Shown here piece after piece: positions 3,804-58,821 of a stretch of DNA of 64,000 bases. A program made the translations under genes and the position numbers. Position 1 is the first letter of the stretch. The number at the start of each line of letters is the position of its first letter. This stretch comes from SAR202 cluster bacterium bin127 (GTDB lineage Bacteria; Chloroflexota; Dehalococcoidia; Lucifugimonadales; Lucifugimonadaceae): the NCBI GenBank assembly GCA_002239045.1, contig MPNN01000002.1, positions 349,061-413,060 of the forward strand, in the 5' to 3' direction. Under the pieces are notes generated by a model that was given only the letters and a program-made list of their open reading frames with translations, ran no database searches and had not been told where the DNA came from.

Positions 3804-4354
3804 TATTGTGCGTTCAACTCGCCCGGTCCCATCGGGAAGTTGAGATCTAGCTCGACCTCTTCGAAGGTCCCGGTGTTTTCGTATTCAACGGTTTCGTTCG
3901 CTTTGACTGCGACACCTTCGGGGTCGCCGAGGCAGAAGACGAAGGGCACATCATTGTCGGGCGGGTGAACCGGACCGTGAATGATGTCGCGATATTTGCC
4001 GTTCTCGAGAATCTCGACTGCGTGTGAGCGTGACGCGGTGAGTTTCACGTAGAGCATTTCGCCTTCGGGCGCGGGTTGACCATCAATATAGGCAGTGCCA
4101 GCGAAGATGTAGGGCATTCCCGGGGGCGGTCCCAGCGGAGTGTCGCCAACGTTCGGCGGTGTTTCGAGGTCTGGGCACTGCAAATCTTGTGTGCTGATCT
4201 CTAATTCGGATTTGGCGGTCGATGTGCCGTCTCCGTCAATGTTCACGATGTTGATTTCGGATGAACTACACGCGAAAACTGTGGCAAGCGCAAAGACCGA
4301 CATCGCGGCAATGATTTTGACGAACGAAGGTTTTGGGACGGTTAGGCTTTTCAT
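3803..4354 (-). CDS. Putative lipoprotein of unknown function
   Basis: MKSLTVPKPSFVKIIAAMSVFALATVFACSSSEINIVN; signal peptide plus lipobox-like FAC; start overlaps gatA stop. Confidence 0.6.
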   Translation of the reverse strand: MKSLTVPKPSFVKIIAAMSVFALATVFACSSSEINIVNIDGDGTSTAKSELEISTQDLQCPDLETPPNVGDTPLGPPPGMPYIFAGTAYIDGQPAPEGEMLYVKLTASRSHAVEILENGKYRDIIHGPVHPPDNDVPFVFCLGDPEGVAVKANETVEYENTGTFEEVELDLNFPMGPGELNAQ

Positions 4355-5817
4355 AATTCTGGAGGTGTCAGCTTCCAATTTGCCGATTGCTCGTAGGCAT
4401 GCGCGATCTGCAACGCGGTGCGGTCTCCCAATTGAGGGGCGACGATTTGCAGTCCTACTGGTAGACCTTCGGAGAGGCCGCAAGGGACCGATATTCCTGG
4501 CAATCCCGCGATGTTGACCGGTATGGTGCAGACGTCGCTGAGATACATCTGGAACGGGTCCTGCGTTTTTTCGCCGATTTCGAAGGCTACGGTCGGAGAG
4601 GTCGGCATGACTAGAGCATCGAACTTTTGGAATGCGTCTTGGAACTCTCGCCGGATGAGAGTCCTGACTTGCTGCGCTTTCTTGTAGTAGGCGTCGTAGT
4701 ACCCGGCTGAGAGTGCATACGTTCCGATGAGTATGCGCCGTTTCACTTCTGGCCCAAATCCGTTACCCCGTGTTGCTTCGATCGATTCGCGAGCGTTTGG
4801 CTCGCCATCGACCGACATTCCGTATTTGACGCCGTCGAAGCGGGAAAGGTTTGCGGACGCTTCAGATGGGGCAATGATGTAGTAGACGGCGAGGGCGTGG
4901 TCGGTTAGGGGAAGGCTGGTCTCTTCGACAACGGCGCCTAGACTTTCGAGGACGGCGATCGAGGCGTCGAATGCGGATCGTACGCCGGGTTCGATGCCTT
5001 CGACGAGGTATTCACGGGGAATACCGATCCGCATTCCATCGATGTCGCGATCGAGGTATTCGGTGAAATCTAGGTCGAGTTCTAGTGATGTTGAGTCGAA
5101 TGAGTCGCGGCCGGAAATTGCATTTGCGGTGTCGGCGCAGTCTGCGACGGTTCTTGCGATGGGTCCGATTTGGTCGAGCGATGAGCCGAATGCGATGAGG
5201 CCGTATCGACTGACGGTGCCGTAAGTAGGTTTGAATCCGACGACGCCGCAGAGCGATGCGGGTTGGCGGATGCTGCCGCCAGTGTCAGATCCGAGAGCGA
5301 TTGCGGCTTCTCCCGCCGCGACGGCCGCCGCGGCTCCGCCGCTGGAACCGCCGGGCACGCGGTTTTTGCCCCACGGGTTGATGACCGCTCCGAATGCGGA
5401 GTTTTCGTTCGACGAGCCCATGGCGAATTCGTCGAGGTTGCCTTTGCCAAGGATGATTGCGCCGGCTTTTTTGAGCCGTGAAACTACGGTGGCATCGAAT
5501 GGCGGGACGTATCCGTCCAAGATCTTGGAGGCGGCGGTGGTGCGGACGCCATCGGTTGATATGTTGTCCTTGATCAGGAACGGTATGCCGGTCATGGCTG
5601 AGGCTTGGCCAGCTCGGATCATCTCGTCTGCGGCGTCGGCTTGGGCGACGATTTGATTTTCGTCCAGTACTGTAAGGAAGGCGTGTGTGTGTTTGTCGAC
5701 TTTTTGAATGCGTTCTAGGTGTGCGAGCGCGGTGTCTCGGACGGTTGCTTGGCCGGATTCGTACTTGGCGCGCATTTCGCGCGCCGACGCGTGGGTTTCG
5801 GGAAGGGTTTCTGTCAT
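4351..5817 (-). CDS. gatA: Asp-tRNA(Asn)/Glu-tRNA(Gln) amidotransferase subunit A
   Basis: GIPFLIKDNISTDGVRTTAASKIL...GGSSGGAAAAVAAGEAAIALGSDTGGSIRQPASLCGVVGFKPTYGTVSRYGLIAFGSSLDQIGP. Confidence 0.97.
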   Translation of the reverse strand: MTETLPETHASAREMRAKYESGQATVRDTALAHLERIQKVDKHTHAFLTVLDENQIVAQADAADEMIRAGQASAMTGIPFLIKDNISTDGVRTTAASKILDGYVPPFDATVVSRLKKAGAIILGKGNLDEFAMGSSNENSAFGAVINPWGKNRVPGGSSGGAAAAVAAGEAAIALGSDTGGSIRQPASLCGVVGFKPTYGTVSRYGLIAFGSSLDQIGPIARTVADCADTANAISGRDSFDSTSLELDLDFTEYLDRDIDGMRIGIPREYLVEGIEPGVRSAFDASIAVLESLGAVVEETSLPLTDHALAVYYIIAPSEASANLSRFDGVKYGMSVDGEPNARESIEATRGNGFGPEVKRRILIGTYALSAGYYDAYYKKAQQVRTLIRREFQDAFQKFDALVMPTSPTVAFEIGEKTQDPFQMYLSDVCTIPVNIAGLPGISVPCGLSEGLPVGLQIVAPQLGDRTALQIAHAYEQSANWKLTPPEL

Positions 5818-53810: not shown

Positions 53811-53956
53811 GGAGCGAGGGTACTTCTGCGACTGCGGGGTGGTGATGCGGGAGGGGATTGTTGTGTTGATGAGGGGTTGTTGCGGGGGACGGAGTGCAAA
53901 GAATTGGAAATTATATATCAGGGTTGACACGCCAAGTGTTTTAGGTTAGCCTTCTG

Positions 53957-54051
53957 GTTGCTACAAACCGTATCTTTTGTCGAACCGACACATGCGACCG
54001 TTCCGGGGCGTTCCGCGCCCCCTGAGCGGTTCGACGCTGGTTTGTAGCAAC
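53957..54051 (+). ncRNA. Nested hairpin leader inside the transposon
   Basis: GTTGCTACAAACC (53957-53969)/GGTTTGTAGCAAC (54039-54051), GTCGAACCG/CGGTTCGAC, GGGGCG/CGCCCC. Confidence 0.6.
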
Positions 54052-54083
54052 ACCTCGAAAGGTCGCGTAAGGGGGTATTCCCT

Positions 54084-54704
54084 ATGGGTGCGAGGGTTTT
54101 TGGGGTGGTTGTGGTATCTATGCTCGCCGCTATTGTCTTGACGGCATGTTCCACGGGTTCGGCATCGTTCACCGTCACGCCAGAACCAGACGTAGTTTCA
54201 GATTGGTATGGCGACATGAGCGCGTTTGAGTTGGGCGCGGTTGCATGTGGGCATATAGGGCGTGCGTTTGGTTCGTATTCAGTCGGAAATGTGGCCGATG
54301 AGAGGGCGCACGCTATCGTGGCGACAAAGATCGATATGGAATTGAAGATCGGTGTGTCTGGCGATGTTTCTTACGGCGACGCGTTGAGGTTGTGTTCCGA
54401 TCTCTACGGCGTCAACGTTGCCGTCAACGGAATTTCACCGACGGACGTAACCTCGGAGCCAAGTGCCACACCGACGATTGAACCGTCGCCGACGATCACG
54501 CCTCCAACCGGCCCGTTGATCCGTGTGACATCGAAGGGTATGACGTTCATGTGCGAACGATTGCGAATGGCGTATAGCACGATGTCGTCCCTGGGTTCGG
54601 ACGCGGCATACACGCACGTCGCGAACACGATGATGATAACCGCCGACTACTCGGAGTATTTCGACGGATACGACGCGAAGACGGCGTTGCGGAAATGCAA
54701 CTGA
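54084..54704 (+). CDS. Transposon passenger: putative lipoprotein
   Basis: MGARVFGVVVVSMLAAIVLTACSTGSAS (lipobox LTAC); Pro/Thr-rich linker. Confidence 0.7.
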   Translation: MGARVFGVVVVSMLAAIVLTACSTGSASFTVTPEPDVVSDWYGDMSAFELGAVACGHIGRAFGSYSVGNVADERAHAIVATKIDMELKIGVSGDVSYGDALRLCSDLYGVNVAVNGISPTDVTSEPSATPTIEPSPTITPPTGPLIRVTSKGMTFMCERLRMAYSTMSSLGSDAAYTHVANTMMITADYSEYFDGYDAKTALRKCN

Positions 54705-54755
54705 TCGGCGTGTGCTAACATCGCGAATCTCGCAGTTAAGGACGAGGACGATACG

Positions 54756-55001
54756 TTGAACCTATACGTCGTCAACGACAACATTCCCGCCAACAGTGTG
54801 CGTGTCCACCTCGCGCGGTGCGATCGTGCCACAGAACGCGCGGGCGTCGGATGGTCAAAGGAATTCAACGATTTGGAATCGGCGATCATCTTCGCCCGTC
54901 AGCTCAACCGCAGAGATGCCAAGGGATGTTACTGGTGCATCAGGGTAGGCGATCTCACGCGCCCGATGAACGAGCTTCTCGAAGAGAACCGATGGCGTTG
55001 A
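54756..55001 (+). CDS. Transposon passenger: hypothetical protein
   Basis: ORF MNLYVVNDNIPANSVRVHLARCDRATERAGVGWSKEFNDLESAIIFARQLNRR... Confidence 0.5.
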   Translation: MNLYVVNDNIPANSVRVHLARCDRATERAGVGWSKEFNDLESAIIFARQLNRRDAKGCYWCIRVGDLTRPMNELLEENRWR

Positions 55002-55026
55002 CGAACCGCGAGGAGGGTGTATAAGA

Positions 55027-55290
55027 ATGAAAATGCCAGGACCTCATTACATCGGCATCACCGCCGGCCCTGCACCAACTGATCTGGTTTTCACATTTTC
55101 ATGTGGGCCAGACAATATTTTCGATCGGAGGCCAGCTGCGCAGGCACAGATCATAGAGTGCGAGAAACATGGGAAGTTCATCGCCATGATGCCTGTTGGC
55201 TTGAGGTTGCCGGACATTTTAGGAAACCCGAGCCCGGTATTGCTGGTTCCGTTCGATGCCGTCGAGTTCGCTCATCAGTTGATGAACTAG
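55027..55290 (+). CDS. Transposon passenger: hypothetical protein
   Basis: ORF MKMPGPHYIGITAGPAPTDLVFTFSCGPDNIFDRRPAAQAQIIECEKHGKF...; upstream gaggaggg. Confidence 0.5.
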   Translation: MKMPGPHYIGITAGPAPTDLVFTFSCGPDNIFDRRPAAQAQIIECEKHGKFIAMMPVGLRLPDILGNPSPVLLVPFDAVEFAHQLMN

Positions 55291-55379
55291 AAGGAAGACT
55301 AAGGAAGACTAGAACGGTTGCTTAATCGTAGAATCGAGGGTAGGATGTTTTCCACATTCAAGATTGGACGAGGATCGCC

Positions 55380-55646
55380 ATGAATGTCTTTGTTGTGATA
55401 TTTGACGGACCTTTGCCGGCGGAATTTCTCCAAGAGGCAAAGAACATCTACGGCGAGCCCAACGTATACCGAGTTTCGGGCTCGGTTGCCGCCGTTCGTT
55501 CTCCAACAATCGACAACCCAGGAGATATCAGTGCGGCGTTGCGTGTGCAGGGTGATAGAACAGCCGCCGTGCTCAAGTTGAACGGCTCCCACTCAGGTTA
55601 TTACTACATACCGTTCTGGGATTGGTTGCGGGAGGCAGTGACATGA
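55380..55646 (+). CDS. Transposon passenger: hypothetical protein
   Basis: ORF MNVFVVIFDGPLPAEFLQEAKNIYGEPNVYRVSGSVAAVRSP...; stop overlaps next start (ATGA). Confidence 0.5.
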   Translation: MNVFVVIFDGPLPAEFLQEAKNIYGEPNVYRVSGSVAAVRSPTIDNPGDISAALRVQGDRTAAVLKLNGSHSGYYYIPFWDWLREAVT

Positions 55647-55873
55647 ACGGCAACCGTGACGACCAGATAGGTTTCGCCAATTACCATGTGCAACAATTAA
55701 CCGAAGTTGGGCAACGGTTGTCGCATCTCGAAGGCGAATTAAAACATTTGGCAACGAAGAAAGATGTCGAATCTGCCAAACTTTCAATGATGACGGTATG
55801 GGTATCAACTGGCGCACTGATCCTCGTAGGTGCGATTGACGTAGCGATCATGCTATGGCGCGCTCTCGATTGA
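55643..55873 (+). CDS. Transposon passenger: small coiled-coil/TM protein
   Basis: MNGNRDDQIGFANYHVQQLTEVGQRLSHLEGELKHLATKKDVESAKLSMMTVWVSTGALILVGAIDVAIMLWRALD; one C-terminal TM. Confidence 0.55.
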   Translation: MNGNRDDQIGFANYHVQQLTEVGQRLSHLEGELKHLATKKDVESAKLSMMTVWVSTGALILVGAIDVAIMLWRALD

Positions 55874-55903
55874 CAGTGTGGCAGACATGAGAACCTCGTT
55901 CGA

Positions 55904-56899
55904 TTAGGCGATCAAGTCCCGATAGCGCAACCGTTTGCCGGACATCCCGCGCACCAGATACACCATCTGGTCGACGGTATCCATGTCCCGAACGCCTTGC
56001 CGTCCCGCGAACTCCGCCACATAGCGGTGCAGGTGCTTGGGCGAGATGCGGTGATACGTGCCGTGGAACCCACGCTTGAGCATCGACCAGAACGACTCCA
56101 CGGCGTTCGTGTGCGCTTGACCACGCACATACTCGCCTACCGAGTGGTTCACCGCTTCATGGCGGATGCCGTTTAACAGGTCGGCGATGTTGTCGTACGC
56201 GGTCGCGCCGTCCGTGTAAAGCGTCGCGCCGTCTTCAACGCTATCTTCCACGAACAAACGCAGGGTTTCACGATCCGTGCTTTGAACCACCCGCGCCTTG
56301 ACCTTGCCGGTCTCGCGATCCTTCGCGCCCACGACGGCGGTTTTGCCGACGGTGCCGCGTCCTGCCTTGGTGCGCTTCCACTCGTGCTTGTTCGATTCCT
56401 TGCCGCCGAAATACGCCTCGTCGACCTCGACCGCGCCGCCGAACGGCGGATCGTCGTTGTCGTCGAACGCCTCGCGGATGCGCTGAAGCATGAACCACGC
56501 CGTCTTTTGAGTAACGCCGATGTCCCGATGGAGTTTCATGGACGACACGCCCTTGAGGGATGTCAGATGCAGGTATATCGCCCACGCCCATTTCCGCAAC
56601 GGGACTTTGGACGTTTCAAGCAACGTTCCGGTGCGGACGCTGAAATACTTGCGGCAGTCGGAACACCAGTAGGGCATTTTGGCGTGGGACGACTCGACGG
56701 TGCGTTCGCCGTTGCATCGCGGGCATTTGCGCCCGTCCGGCCACATCTTGGACTCGAACCAATCCTGTGCCGTTTCTTCGTCTGGGAACATGTCGCCGAG
56801 TTGCAACATGGTGATGCCTCGGCGGTGCGATTTTCCGGGTGCTTTGGAGTGCGCGTCATTCACAACGCCAACCCTTTCAATCCCGCTTTTTCGAGACAT
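55904..56899 (-). CDS. IS1595-family (ISXO2-like) transposase
   Basis: Zn-ribbon CPRCNGERTVESSHAKMPYWCSDCRKYFSVRTGTLLETSKVPLRKW; VEVDEAYFGGKESNKHEW; YTDGATAYDNI; HTNAVESFWSMLKRGFHGTYHRISPKHLHRYVAEFAGR. Confidence 0.96.
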   Translation of the reverse strand: MSRKSGIERVGVVNDAHSKAPGKSHRRGITMLQLGDMFPDEETAQDWFESKMWPDGRKCPRCNGERTVESSHAKMPYWCSDCRKYFSVRTGTLLETSKVPLRKWAWAIYLHLTSLKGVSSMKLHRDIGVTQKTAWFMLQRIREAFDDNDDPPFGGAVEVDEAYFGGKESNKHEWKRTKAGRGTVGKTAVVGAKDRETGKVKARVVQSTDRETLRLFVEDSVEDGATLYTDGATAYDNIADLLNGIRHEAVNHSVGEYVRGQAHTNAVESFWSMLKRGFHGTYHRISPKHLHRYVAEFAGRQGVRDMDTVDQMVYLVRGMSGKRLRYRDLIA

Positions 56900-57168
56900 C
56901 GGTCGATGTCGATTTTGTCGTTTTGGAGTTCCGTCAACTTGTCCACAAGGTCGAACACGTCACGCACGATATCCAAATCGACATCGGGACGATTCGACCA
57001 ATTGCTTCCCTCGTCCATCCTGAACCCCGATGCATATTGCTCCATAGCGGACGCCATGCGTTGAAGGATTTTACGGCGATCATCCAACTCGCTTTCAACG
57101 ACGGCTATCGCCTCGGAATTCGCTTTGGCTTTTTGAACGAGTCGTCCGATTGATGCTTCTTTGTTCAT
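56860..57168 (-). CDS. Small protein upstream of and overlapping the transposase start; possibly leaderless
   Basis: MNKEASIGRLVQKAKANSEAIAVVESELDDRRKILQRMASAMEQ...; ATG at 57168 follows TACGAT at 57175-57180 (minus strand). Confidence 0.55.
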   Translation of the reverse strand: MNKEASIGRLVQKAKANSEAIAVVESELDDRRKILQRMASAMEQYASGFRMDEGSNWSNRPDVDLDIVRDVFDLVDKLTELQNDKIDIDRCLEKAGLKGLAL

Positions 57169-57174
57169 ACTTGA

Positions 57175-57203
57175 ATCGTATCAAATTTGAACTGATTTGT
57201 CAA
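57175..57203 (-). promoter_or_regulatory. Promoter within right IR of IS1595 element
   Basis: Minus strand TTGACA-N17-TACGAT; -35 lies inside the IR. Confidence 0.6.
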
Positions 57204-57429
57204 CCCTGATATATAATTCCCAAAGAATTCATACGGTGGTGGTAGGGCAACGACGAGGGGTGTTGCTGCGGTGGTGGTTTTCGGGATCATCTGGGAACTC
57301 GTTTCGCTTGTTCGTTTCTCATTCATTCCGATGTGGCGAGCATTAGTTGCACTTTGAGGGAATTTGTTAGAAAATGATGGAAGAATGTGGAACCGCCGCG
57401 TTGGGAAGTTTTAGGAAGGAGCTTTGAGC

Positions 57430-58821
57430 ATGGCCAATTTGAAGGTGCGTGATGTTGCTGAGCGTTTGGATGTCAGCAGCAAGACGGTCTACAAGTGGCT
57501 TCGTGAGGGGCTTATACCGGCGAGTCGGCTGGGGAGGAGTTGGATCGTATCGGAGGAGGCGCTGCAGGCAGCGCTGGCTCCGGGGTCGAACCGTCCGCTG
57601 TCGAGCGCGGTAGTTGACGAAGACGCGGTGACGTCGGCGTCTGGTTCTGGTGGCGTTCTGGATTCCCGCGTGCGCGGGAATGACGTAGCGCTTGGCGCGG
57701 AACCGATGGTTTCCGTCAAACCATTTGAAAGGAGAACCCCTGTGGGTCGAATTAATGTTGCAGTTGTTGGCTTGGGGAATTGTGCCTCATCGCTGATTCA
57801 AGGTGTTCACAAATATGGCGAGGTCGATGAGAACTCGTCGTCGGTGCCGGGTGTGATGCACAACGTTCTTGGCGGTTACACCATCGGCGATGTGAACATC
57901 GTCGCCGCTTTCGACGTTGACAAGGAGAAGGTCGGCGTAGACATAAACGAAGCGATCTTTGCGAAGACGAACAATGCATTGCAGTTCCACGACGTGCCTC
58001 GTGCTGGCATTGCGGTGGATCGCGGAATGACGCACGATGGGATCGGGCAGTATTTGGAGGATGTGGTGGAGAAGGCTCCGGGATCGACGGCTGACATCGT
58101 GGGGATTCTGCGGGACCGGGAAGTGGATGTAGTGATCAACTACCTTCCGGTGGGTTCGGAGCAGGCGACGAAGTGGTATGTGGAGCAGGTGTTGGCGGCG
58201 GGTTGTGCGTTTGTGAACTGCATCCCGGTGTTTATTGCGAAGGAGCAGTATTGGCAGAAGCGTTTCGAGGACAAGGGAGTGCCGGTCGTTGGGGACGACA
58301 TCAAGTCGCAGGTGGGTGCGACGATCATCCATCGGATGTTGGCGAGGTTGTTCGAGGACCGGGGCGTTCGGTTGGACCGGACGTATCAGCTGAACTTCGG
58401 CGGGAACACGGATTTCTACAACATGCTAGAGCGTGCGCGGCTGGTGACGAAGAAGATATCCAAGACGCAGTCGGTTCAGTCGCAGTTGGAGAAGGAGTTG
58501 CCGACGGATGATGTTCACATTAGTCCTAGCGACCACGTTTCGTGGTTGGAGGATCGGAAGTGGGCTTACATCCGGTTGGAGGGGACGTCTTGGGGCGATG
58601 TGCCGCTGAATGTGGAGTTGAAGTTGGAGGTTGAGGACAGCCCGAACTCTGCGGGGGTAGCGATCGATGCGATTCGTTCGGCGAAGATTGCGCTGGACAA
58701 GGGAGTTGCAGGAGCGATCGAGCCGGCGTCGGCGTACTTCATGAAGTCGCCTCCGGTGCAGATGCGAGACGATGATGCGCGTAAGGCGGTGATTGAGTTT
58801 GCGGGGAATGGGATGGTTTGA
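57430..58821 (+). CDS. HTH (excisionase/MerR-like) domain fused to myo-inositol-1-phosphate synthase-like protein
   Basis: [45 protein letters not shown] (HTH); from residue ~105 [26 protein letters not shown]...[39 protein letters not shown]...[13 protein letters not shown]. Confidence 0.92.
57658..57685. repeat. dRS3-like palindrome located inside the HTH-inositol synthase ORF
   Basis: ctggattcccgcgtgcgcgggaatgacg, encoding LDSRVRGND. Confidence 0.9.

What the first reader, a model, noticed from the sequence alone, without database searches (positions are those of the whole stretch)
53898..57229. Complete IS1595-family transposon carrying five or six passenger genes
Perfect 8-bp AAAGAATT target duplication (53898-53905 / 57222-57229), 24-bp inverted ends with one mismatch, and an ISXO2-type transposase delimit a 3316-bp element. 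Only ~1 kb is transposase. The rest encodes a lipoprotein, three small unknown proteins, a coiled-coil/TM protein and a protein co-transcribed with the transposase. 8-bp duplications are typical of IS1595. None of the passengers is a standard resistance gene, so the cargo could be a new defence, adhesion or regulatory module.
Basis: partly seen in the sequence, partly recalled or inferred. Interest (0 to 1): 0.7.

Follow-up and report, generated by a model that had tools for sequence, protein, structure and literature searches.

The report
Cargo-swapping IS1595 transposon with small-gene cassette
This is an intact jumping element in a Chloroflexota bacterium whose relatives, found in many unrelated and often sponge-associated bacteria, keep the same kind of transposase and ends but exchange the genes they carry, often DNA-modification genes; this copy carries an unnamed gene pair that recurs in other such elements and may be a defence or addiction module.

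Summary
Window 53906-57221 is a complete 3316-bp IS1595-family element with 24-bp inverted ends, an exact 8-bp target duplication and a DDE/zinc-ribbon transposase. A same-genus genome has the empty site. IS1595 elements with passenger genes are already known ("transporter IS"). New here: 79 elements (66 with exact 8-bp duplications, median 2.77 kb, many phyla) nearly all carry cargo. In aligned pairs the transposase arm and often the last ~80-170 bp are conserved while the middle is replaced. 21 of 79 carry an N6/N4 DNA methyltransferase, against 1 in 627 kb of flanking DNA.

In the window's cargo two overlapping genes form a conserved module. p4 is 88 aa; AlphaFold2 gives a Cas2-like ferredoxin fold (pLDDT 88). 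p5 is 76 aa, coiled coil plus one membrane helix. All ten p4 loci found have a p5-like partner downstream. Three lie in TSD-bounded IS1595 elements with divergent transposases (Chloroflexota, Alphaproteobacteria). A lipoprotein domain of p1 probably recurs in one of them. p3 and p7 are orphans.

Function is inferred: a mobile defence or addiction module is most likely (about 0.35-0.4). No known defence family matches.

The parts
53898..53905 (.). left copy of the 8-bp target duplication AAAGAATT
   Evidence: exact match to 57222-57229; single octamer AAGGAATC at the empty site of G004
53906..53929 (+). left inverted repeat, 24 bp
   Evidence: 23 of 24 match the right end; GGGRATTATATAC-type end shared by the 66 elements
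53994..54080 (+). leader upstream of p1, conserved in another IS1595 locus of the same genome
   Evidence: 78% identity to L121:4140-4226, again directly upstream of a lipoprotein ORF; no Rfam match
54084..54704 (+). p1, 206-aa predicted lipoprotein; C-terminal ~60-aa domain with two Cys
   Evidence: lipobox LTAC in sequence; C-terminal domain shared with L149 (52-54%) and probably L162:6234-6551 (E 0.02); no Pfam
54756..55001 (+). p2, 81-aa His/Cys-containing small protein (H-x3-C ... C-x2-C)
   Evidence: phrog_4298 E 1e-6; 54% paralog L124:4055-4288 near a transposase remnant
55027..55290 (+). p3, 87-aa ORF without relatives
   Evidence: no convincing match in 301 Chloroflexota genomes; Shine-Dalgarno-like GAGGAGG upstream
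55380..55646 (+). p4, 88-aa protein of predicted ferredoxin-like (Cas2-like) fold; first gene of the conserved pair
   Evidence: family alignment A3 of 8 sequences; AlphaFold2 pLDDT 87.7; homologs in IS1595 elements L097 and L162
55643..55873 (+). p5, 76-aa coiled coil plus one C-terminal membrane helix; second gene of the pair, ATGA overlap with p4
   Evidence: p5-like gene directly follows p4 in all ten loci; hydrophobic segment 52-70
55904..56899 (-). IS1595-family transposase (likely start GTG 56863)
   Evidence: PF12762, PF12760, NF033547; D160, D230, N265/E268, K275 and two CxxC present
56860..57168 (-). p7, 102-aa coiled-coil-like ORF upstream of and overlapping the transposase
   Evidence: GTGA overlap with the probable transposase start; no convincing relative in 301 genomes
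57175..57203 (-). sigma-70-like promoter, -35 TTGACA inside the right inverted repeat, reading into p7-transposase
   Evidence: TTGACA-17-TACGAT, 10 of 12; total matches in the region are no more than in shuffles, so not proof
57198..57221 (-). right inverted repeat, 24 bp
57222..57229 (.). right copy of the 8-bp target duplication

Best explanation
The element is an intact IS1595-family transposon of the passenger-carrying ('transporter IS') kind. It belongs to a lineage built as a chassis (transposase arm plus a short opposite end) with an exchangeable cargo slot, spread across many phyla. Shown: ends, target duplication, empty site, chassis/cargo split, methyltransferase enrichment of the slot, recurrence of p4-p5. 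Inferred: the transposase moves everything between the ends, duplicating 8 bp of AT-rich target. The conserved pair p4-p5 (small protein of Cas2-like fold, gene overlapping that of a membrane-anchored coiled-coil protein) is most likely a mobile defence or addiction module that helps carrier and element persist, with p4 sensing or controlling and p5 acting at the membrane. p1 (lipoprotein) and p2 (probably metal-binding) would be accessory cargo.
For: Ends, duplication, domains and empty site. 66 elements with exact 8-bp duplications, median 2.77 kb. Same chassis, different middle: L078/L088, L097/L076, L064/L069, L098/L099. N6/N4 methyltransferase in 21 of 79 elements versus 1 in 627 kb of flank, p about 3e-14; other restriction-modification domains. 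p4-p5 adjacent in all ten loci and in three TSD-bounded IS1595 elements with divergent transposases. Confident fold for p4.
Against: No known defence or toxin-antitoxin family matches. The window element has no methyltransferase. Six of the ten p4-p5 loci show no IS1595 transposase nearby, so the pair is not tied to transposons. The element sample was drawn by similarity to this transposase and capped at 80. No phenotype data.
Confidence: 0.55

Rival explanations
1. Passive cargo: the element picks up host genes by chance and keeps them briefly; p4-p5 is a small operon of unrelated function, for example in the envelope, that elements happen to capture.
For: p3 and p7 are orphans; six p4-p5 loci lie outside recognisable IS1595 elements; cargo differs between close chassis; p5 is frameshifted in L156.
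Against: Recurrence of p4-p5 in three divergent elements of two phyla, and the strong methyltransferase bias of the slot, are not expected of random capture.
Confidence: 0.3
2. p4-p5 is a GhoST-like toxin-antitoxin pair: p4 acts as a Cas2-fold antitoxin or RNase, p5 as a small membrane toxin.
For: Gene order small soluble protein then membrane protein; GhoS, VapD and Cas2 are among the fold neighbours of similar size; genes overlap.
Against: Fold matches are all weak (no E <= 0.001; GhoS TM 0.42, E 0.067), and the ferredoxin fold is very common. p5 has one membrane helix after a coiled-coil-like stretch. No invariant acidic residue at the end of strand 1 across the p4 family.
Confidence: 0.15
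3. p4-p5, p7 or the lipoprotein help the element transpose or regulate the transposase.
For: p7 overlaps the transposase start; p4-p5 sits next to transposases in four loci.
Against: Most sister elements lack all of these genes, and p4-p5 occurs without a transposase nearby.
Confidence: 0.1
4. A surface or envelope module: p1 lipoprotein with p5 as membrane partner alters the cell surface, for example for adhesion or phage-receptor masking.
For: p1 has a lipobox; a p1-like lipoprotein probably co-occurs with p4-p5 in L162; L121 also has leader plus lipoprotein.
Against: p1 is absent from most p4-p5 loci fetched and the L162 match is weak, E 0.02. No adhesion domain was found.
Confidence: 0.12

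Closest known systems
IS1595 family, passenger-carrying 'transporter IS' members (Siguier, Gagnevin and Chandler 2009, cited in PMC3129680 and PMC8101967)
   Same: Transposase domains, GG-beginning inverted repeats, 8-bp target duplications, passenger genes unrelated to transposition
   Different: Cargo here is an undescribed small-gene set; in this lineage cargo is the rule and is swapped on a fixed chassis with a restriction-modification bias, which I did not find described in the open papers searched
Restriction-modification cargo of sister IS1595 elements (e.g. L041, L046, L061, L063)
   Same: Same slot between transposase arm and opposite end
   Different: The window element carries no methyltransferase or nuclease recognised by Pfam, NCBIfam or PADLOC
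BPSL1038 and the Cas2/VapD nuclease group (PMC10491678)
   Same: Predicted strand-helix-strand-strand-helix-strand-helix fold and size of p4; PDB 7vxr_B at TM 0.56
   Different: No significant sequence match; the catalytic Asp at the end of strand 1 is not invariant in the p4 family; no sign of a CRISPR locus in the neighbourhood read
GhoS/GhoT type V toxin-antitoxin system
   Same: Small ferredoxin-fold protein encoded before a small membrane protein
   Different: Weak fold match only; p5 has a coiled-coil-like stretch and one membrane helix; no toxicity data

Membership tests
IS1595 family | DDE_Tnp_IS1595 domain | tested here: met
   PF12762 E 2.1e-41, NF033547 E 1.1e-60
IS1595 family | N-terminal zinc ribbon (all groups except IS1016, PMC8101967) | tested here: met
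   PF12760 E 2.8e-7; C59xxC62 and C79xxC82
IS1595 family | 8-bp target duplication | tested here: met
   AAAGAATT both sides; empty site in G004; 65 further elements with exact 8-bp duplications
IS1595 family | Terminal inverted repeats beginning GG | tested here: met
   23 of 24 match
IS1595 family | Complete catalytic residues | tested here: inconclusive
   D160, D230, N265/E268 and K275 located by eye at the expected motifs; activity not tested
Transporter IS (IS1595 with passenger genes) | Genes unrelated to transposition inside the inverted repeats | tested here: met
   p1-p5 between the ends; p4-p5 also occurs away from transposases
Cas2/VapD nuclease group (p4) | Ferredoxin-like fold of about 90 residues | tested here: met
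   AlphaFold2 model pLDDT 87.7; a prediction, not a solved structure
Cas2/VapD nuclease group (p4) | Conserved catalytic Asp after strand 1 | tested here: not met
   Positions 9-10 vary (D/K/A/Q/E and G/E/D) in A3
Cas2/VapD nuclease group (p4) | Significant sequence or fold match | tested here: not met
   No Pfam, PADLOC or PDB sequence match; Foldseek E >= 0.01
GhoST-like type V toxin-antitoxin (p4-p5) | Small soluble gene followed by small membrane-protein gene | tested here: met
   All ten loci; one partner frameshifted (L156)
GhoST-like type V toxin-antitoxin (p4-p5) | Membrane toxicity neutralised by cleavage of toxin mRNA | not testable with these tools
   Needs expression experiments
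Known anti-phage defence systems (window cargo) | Match to a PADLOC model | tested here: not met
   0 families for all seven proteins and for the p4 alignment

The most novel reading that the evidence does not exclude
p4-p5 is an undescribed two-gene toxin-antitoxin or abortive-defence system (Cas2-like-fold controller plus membrane-anchored coiled-coil effector), spread between phyla by a cargo-swapping IS1595 lineage whose slot is otherwise rich in DNA-methyltransferase genes.
Probability: 0.25. Interest if true: 0.75.

Novelty: new variant of a known kind. Interest (0 to 1): 0.5.

Why it matters
If right, small single-transposase elements, usually treated as bare insertion sequences, act as interchangeable carriers of defence-type genes across phyla. 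The cargo slot then becomes a place to look for unknown defence or addiction modules, and p4-p5 is a compact, testable candidate.

Tried and rejected
Inverted-repeat pattern in viral contigs: none. p2 and p4 in viral contigs, phages or plasmids: none. phrog_4298 in 201 Chloroflexota genomes: none, not even the window's own p2, so p2 is a divergent member at best. Rfam on the element: two sub-threshold chance matches, rejected. PDB sequence search with p4: chance level. AlphaFold2 of p2 alone: pLDDT 61, not used. The p1 match in G062 (L150) lies in a Pro/Thr-rich stretch of a larger hydrolase-like protein and was rejected. The longest ORF in the L097 cargo (4258-5238) is only partly the real reading frame; p4 4511-4792 and p5 from 4792 were preferred. 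Exclusive adhesion reading: no domain support.
Full report
WHAT IS THERE. Window 53906-57221 (3316 bp) has 24-bp ends with one mismatch and an exact AAAGAATT duplication at 53898-53905 and 57222-57229. About 8e-8 such pairs are expected by chance in 12 kb. The transposase (55904-56899, minus) matches PF12762 at 2e-41, the IS1595 zinc ribbon PF12760 and NF033547 at 1e-60. That these MAG series come from marine sponges rests partly on titles (Spongia, lac_sponge) and partly on memory.

EMPTY SITE. In same-genus G004 the flanking gene neighbourhood is about 90-95% identical. Where the window has GACGGAGTGC-AAAGAATT-[element]-AAAGAATT-CATACGGTGGTGGTAGGGCAAC, G004 reads GACGGAGTGC-AAGGAATC-GCTGCGGTGGCGGTAGGGCAAC, with one octamer and no element. 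G004 also has about 350 bp of other intergenic repeat nearby that the window lacks, so the region is generally unstable.

THE LINEAGE. The one genome-collection scan returned 80 loci from many phyla. Of these plus same-genus copies and the window, 66 have closely matching ends and an exact 8-bp duplication; 13 more have clear ends only, or are cut by a contig end. Lengths of the 66 are 1.4-5.6 kb, median 2.77 kb, so about 1.6 kb beyond the transposase is usual. Ends share GGGRATTATATAC; half of the 66 carry TTGAC in both ends; duplications are 75% AT. In the window TTGACA-17-TACGAT points at p7/transposase with its -35 in the inverted repeat; this is a consensus match only.

CHASSIS AND CARGO. 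Pairs with similar transposases show what is exchanged. L078 and L088 are 89% identical over bp 1-1078 and 92% over the last 146 bp, with nothing alignable between (1.6 and 1.8 kb). L097/L076, L064/L069 and L098/L099 behave similarly, the last two with some shared cargo pieces; other pairs share only the transposase arm. On the transposase tree the methyltransferase label needs 14 changes for 21 rows (quick tree, many weak forks). N6/N4 methyltransferases occur in 21 of 79 elements (156 kb outside the transposases) but once in 627 kb of flanking DNA, p about 3e-14; removing three near-copies leaves p about 4e-12. Other cargo includes HNH, type I M and S, C5 methylase, NgoFVII and HSDR_N domains. 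The sample is biased: it was drawn by similarity to this transposase and capped at 80.

THE WINDOW'S CARGO. p1-p5 read left to right, each with a plausible ribosome site. None matches Pfam, NCBIfam or PADLOC; p2 matches phrog_4298 at 1e-6. p3 and p7 have no convincing relative in 301 genomes. p2 has a 54% paralog in the same genome about 1 kb from an IS1595 transposase remnant (L124). The leader before p1 recurs at 78% in another IS1595 locus of the same genome, again just before a lipoprotein ORF (L121).

THE p4-p5 PAIR. An all-against-all comparison of cargo ORFs linked p4 to an ORF in L097, a TSD-bounded element from an alphaproteobacterium. A two-sequence profile then found p4 in nine of 400 Chloroflexota genomes, the window's included, one of them only weakly. 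In each of the ten loci read (window, L097, L153-L159, L161) a small protein with a coiled-coil-like stretch and a membrane helix follows; the weak hit L160 was left out. In the window the genes overlap as ATGA, in L097 as TAATG. In L156 the partner is frameshifted, and in L097 the membrane helix precedes the coiled coil. L162 (which contains L161) is a third TSD-bounded IS1595 element (4139 bp, AATAGCTT) with p4 and p5, and probably a p1-like lipoprotein (E 0.02, first hit after the input sequences). L163 (which contains L157) has the pair beside a decayed transposase; the six other loci show no transposase nearby (for L156 only 3.3 kb was read). Distribution is patchy: 4 of 24 genomes in the order of G199.

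p4 STRUCTURE. AlphaFold2 on two sequences gives pLDDT 87.7, pTM 0.79 and strand-helix-strand-strand-helix-strand-helix. Foldseek has no match at E <= 0.001; among proteins of similar size the best include BPSL1038, Cas2, VapD and GhoS. BPSL1038 is a reported Cas2/VapD-like nuclease with a catalytic D11 (PMC10491678). p4 lacks a conserved equivalent, so it is at most similar in fold to that group and is not filed in it.

MECHANISM AND CONFIDENCE. That this is a complete IS1595 passenger element: about 0.97. That p4-p5 is a genuine conserved two-gene unit: about 0.9. That it acts in defence or addiction: about 0.35-0.4, by company (methyltransferase-rich slot), patchy mobile distribution, and the architecture of a small soluble protein plus a membrane protein. 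How p4 and p5 act is inference.

KNOWN OR NEW. Passenger-carrying IS1595 elements are known: PMC3129680 cites Siguier et al. 2009 for transporter ISs. The open-library searches did not turn up methyltransferase cargo exchange in IS1595; the p4-p5 pair has no name to search by, and subscription papers were not searchable. I file it as a new variant of a known kind.

Noticed in passing
window 57424-58821 (repeat near 57657-57685): The inositol-phosphate-synthase-like ORF with an N-terminal helix-turn-helix carries, between the two domains, a ~29-bp dispersed repeat (peptide LDSRVRGND) that occurs dozens of times in this genome and its relatives.
   Followed up: no
window 9899-39112: Five very large, mutually similar secreted-type proteins of about 1200-1300 aa lie in a row on the plus strand.
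   Followed up: no
L145:2850-3215 (G004): About 350 bp of intergenic repeat next to the empty site is absent from the window, a second indel at the same locus.
   Followed up: partly
L124:547-2367 and 4055-4288: The p2 paralog lies near a large ORF that looks like a DUF262-type protein (from memory, not tested) and a transposase C-terminal remnant.
   Followed up: partly
L121:4140-4226 and window 53994-54080: A conserved GC-rich leader with possible stem-loops precedes two unrelated lipoprotein ORFs in two IS1595 loci of one genome; it could be a regulatory RNA or promoter region.
   Followed up: partly
Distal ends of about 20 elements (e.g. L052:10558-10899, L054:7655-7813, L098:5046-5234): A family of short ORFs recurs near the end opposite the transposase, possibly part of the chassis.
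   Followed up: no
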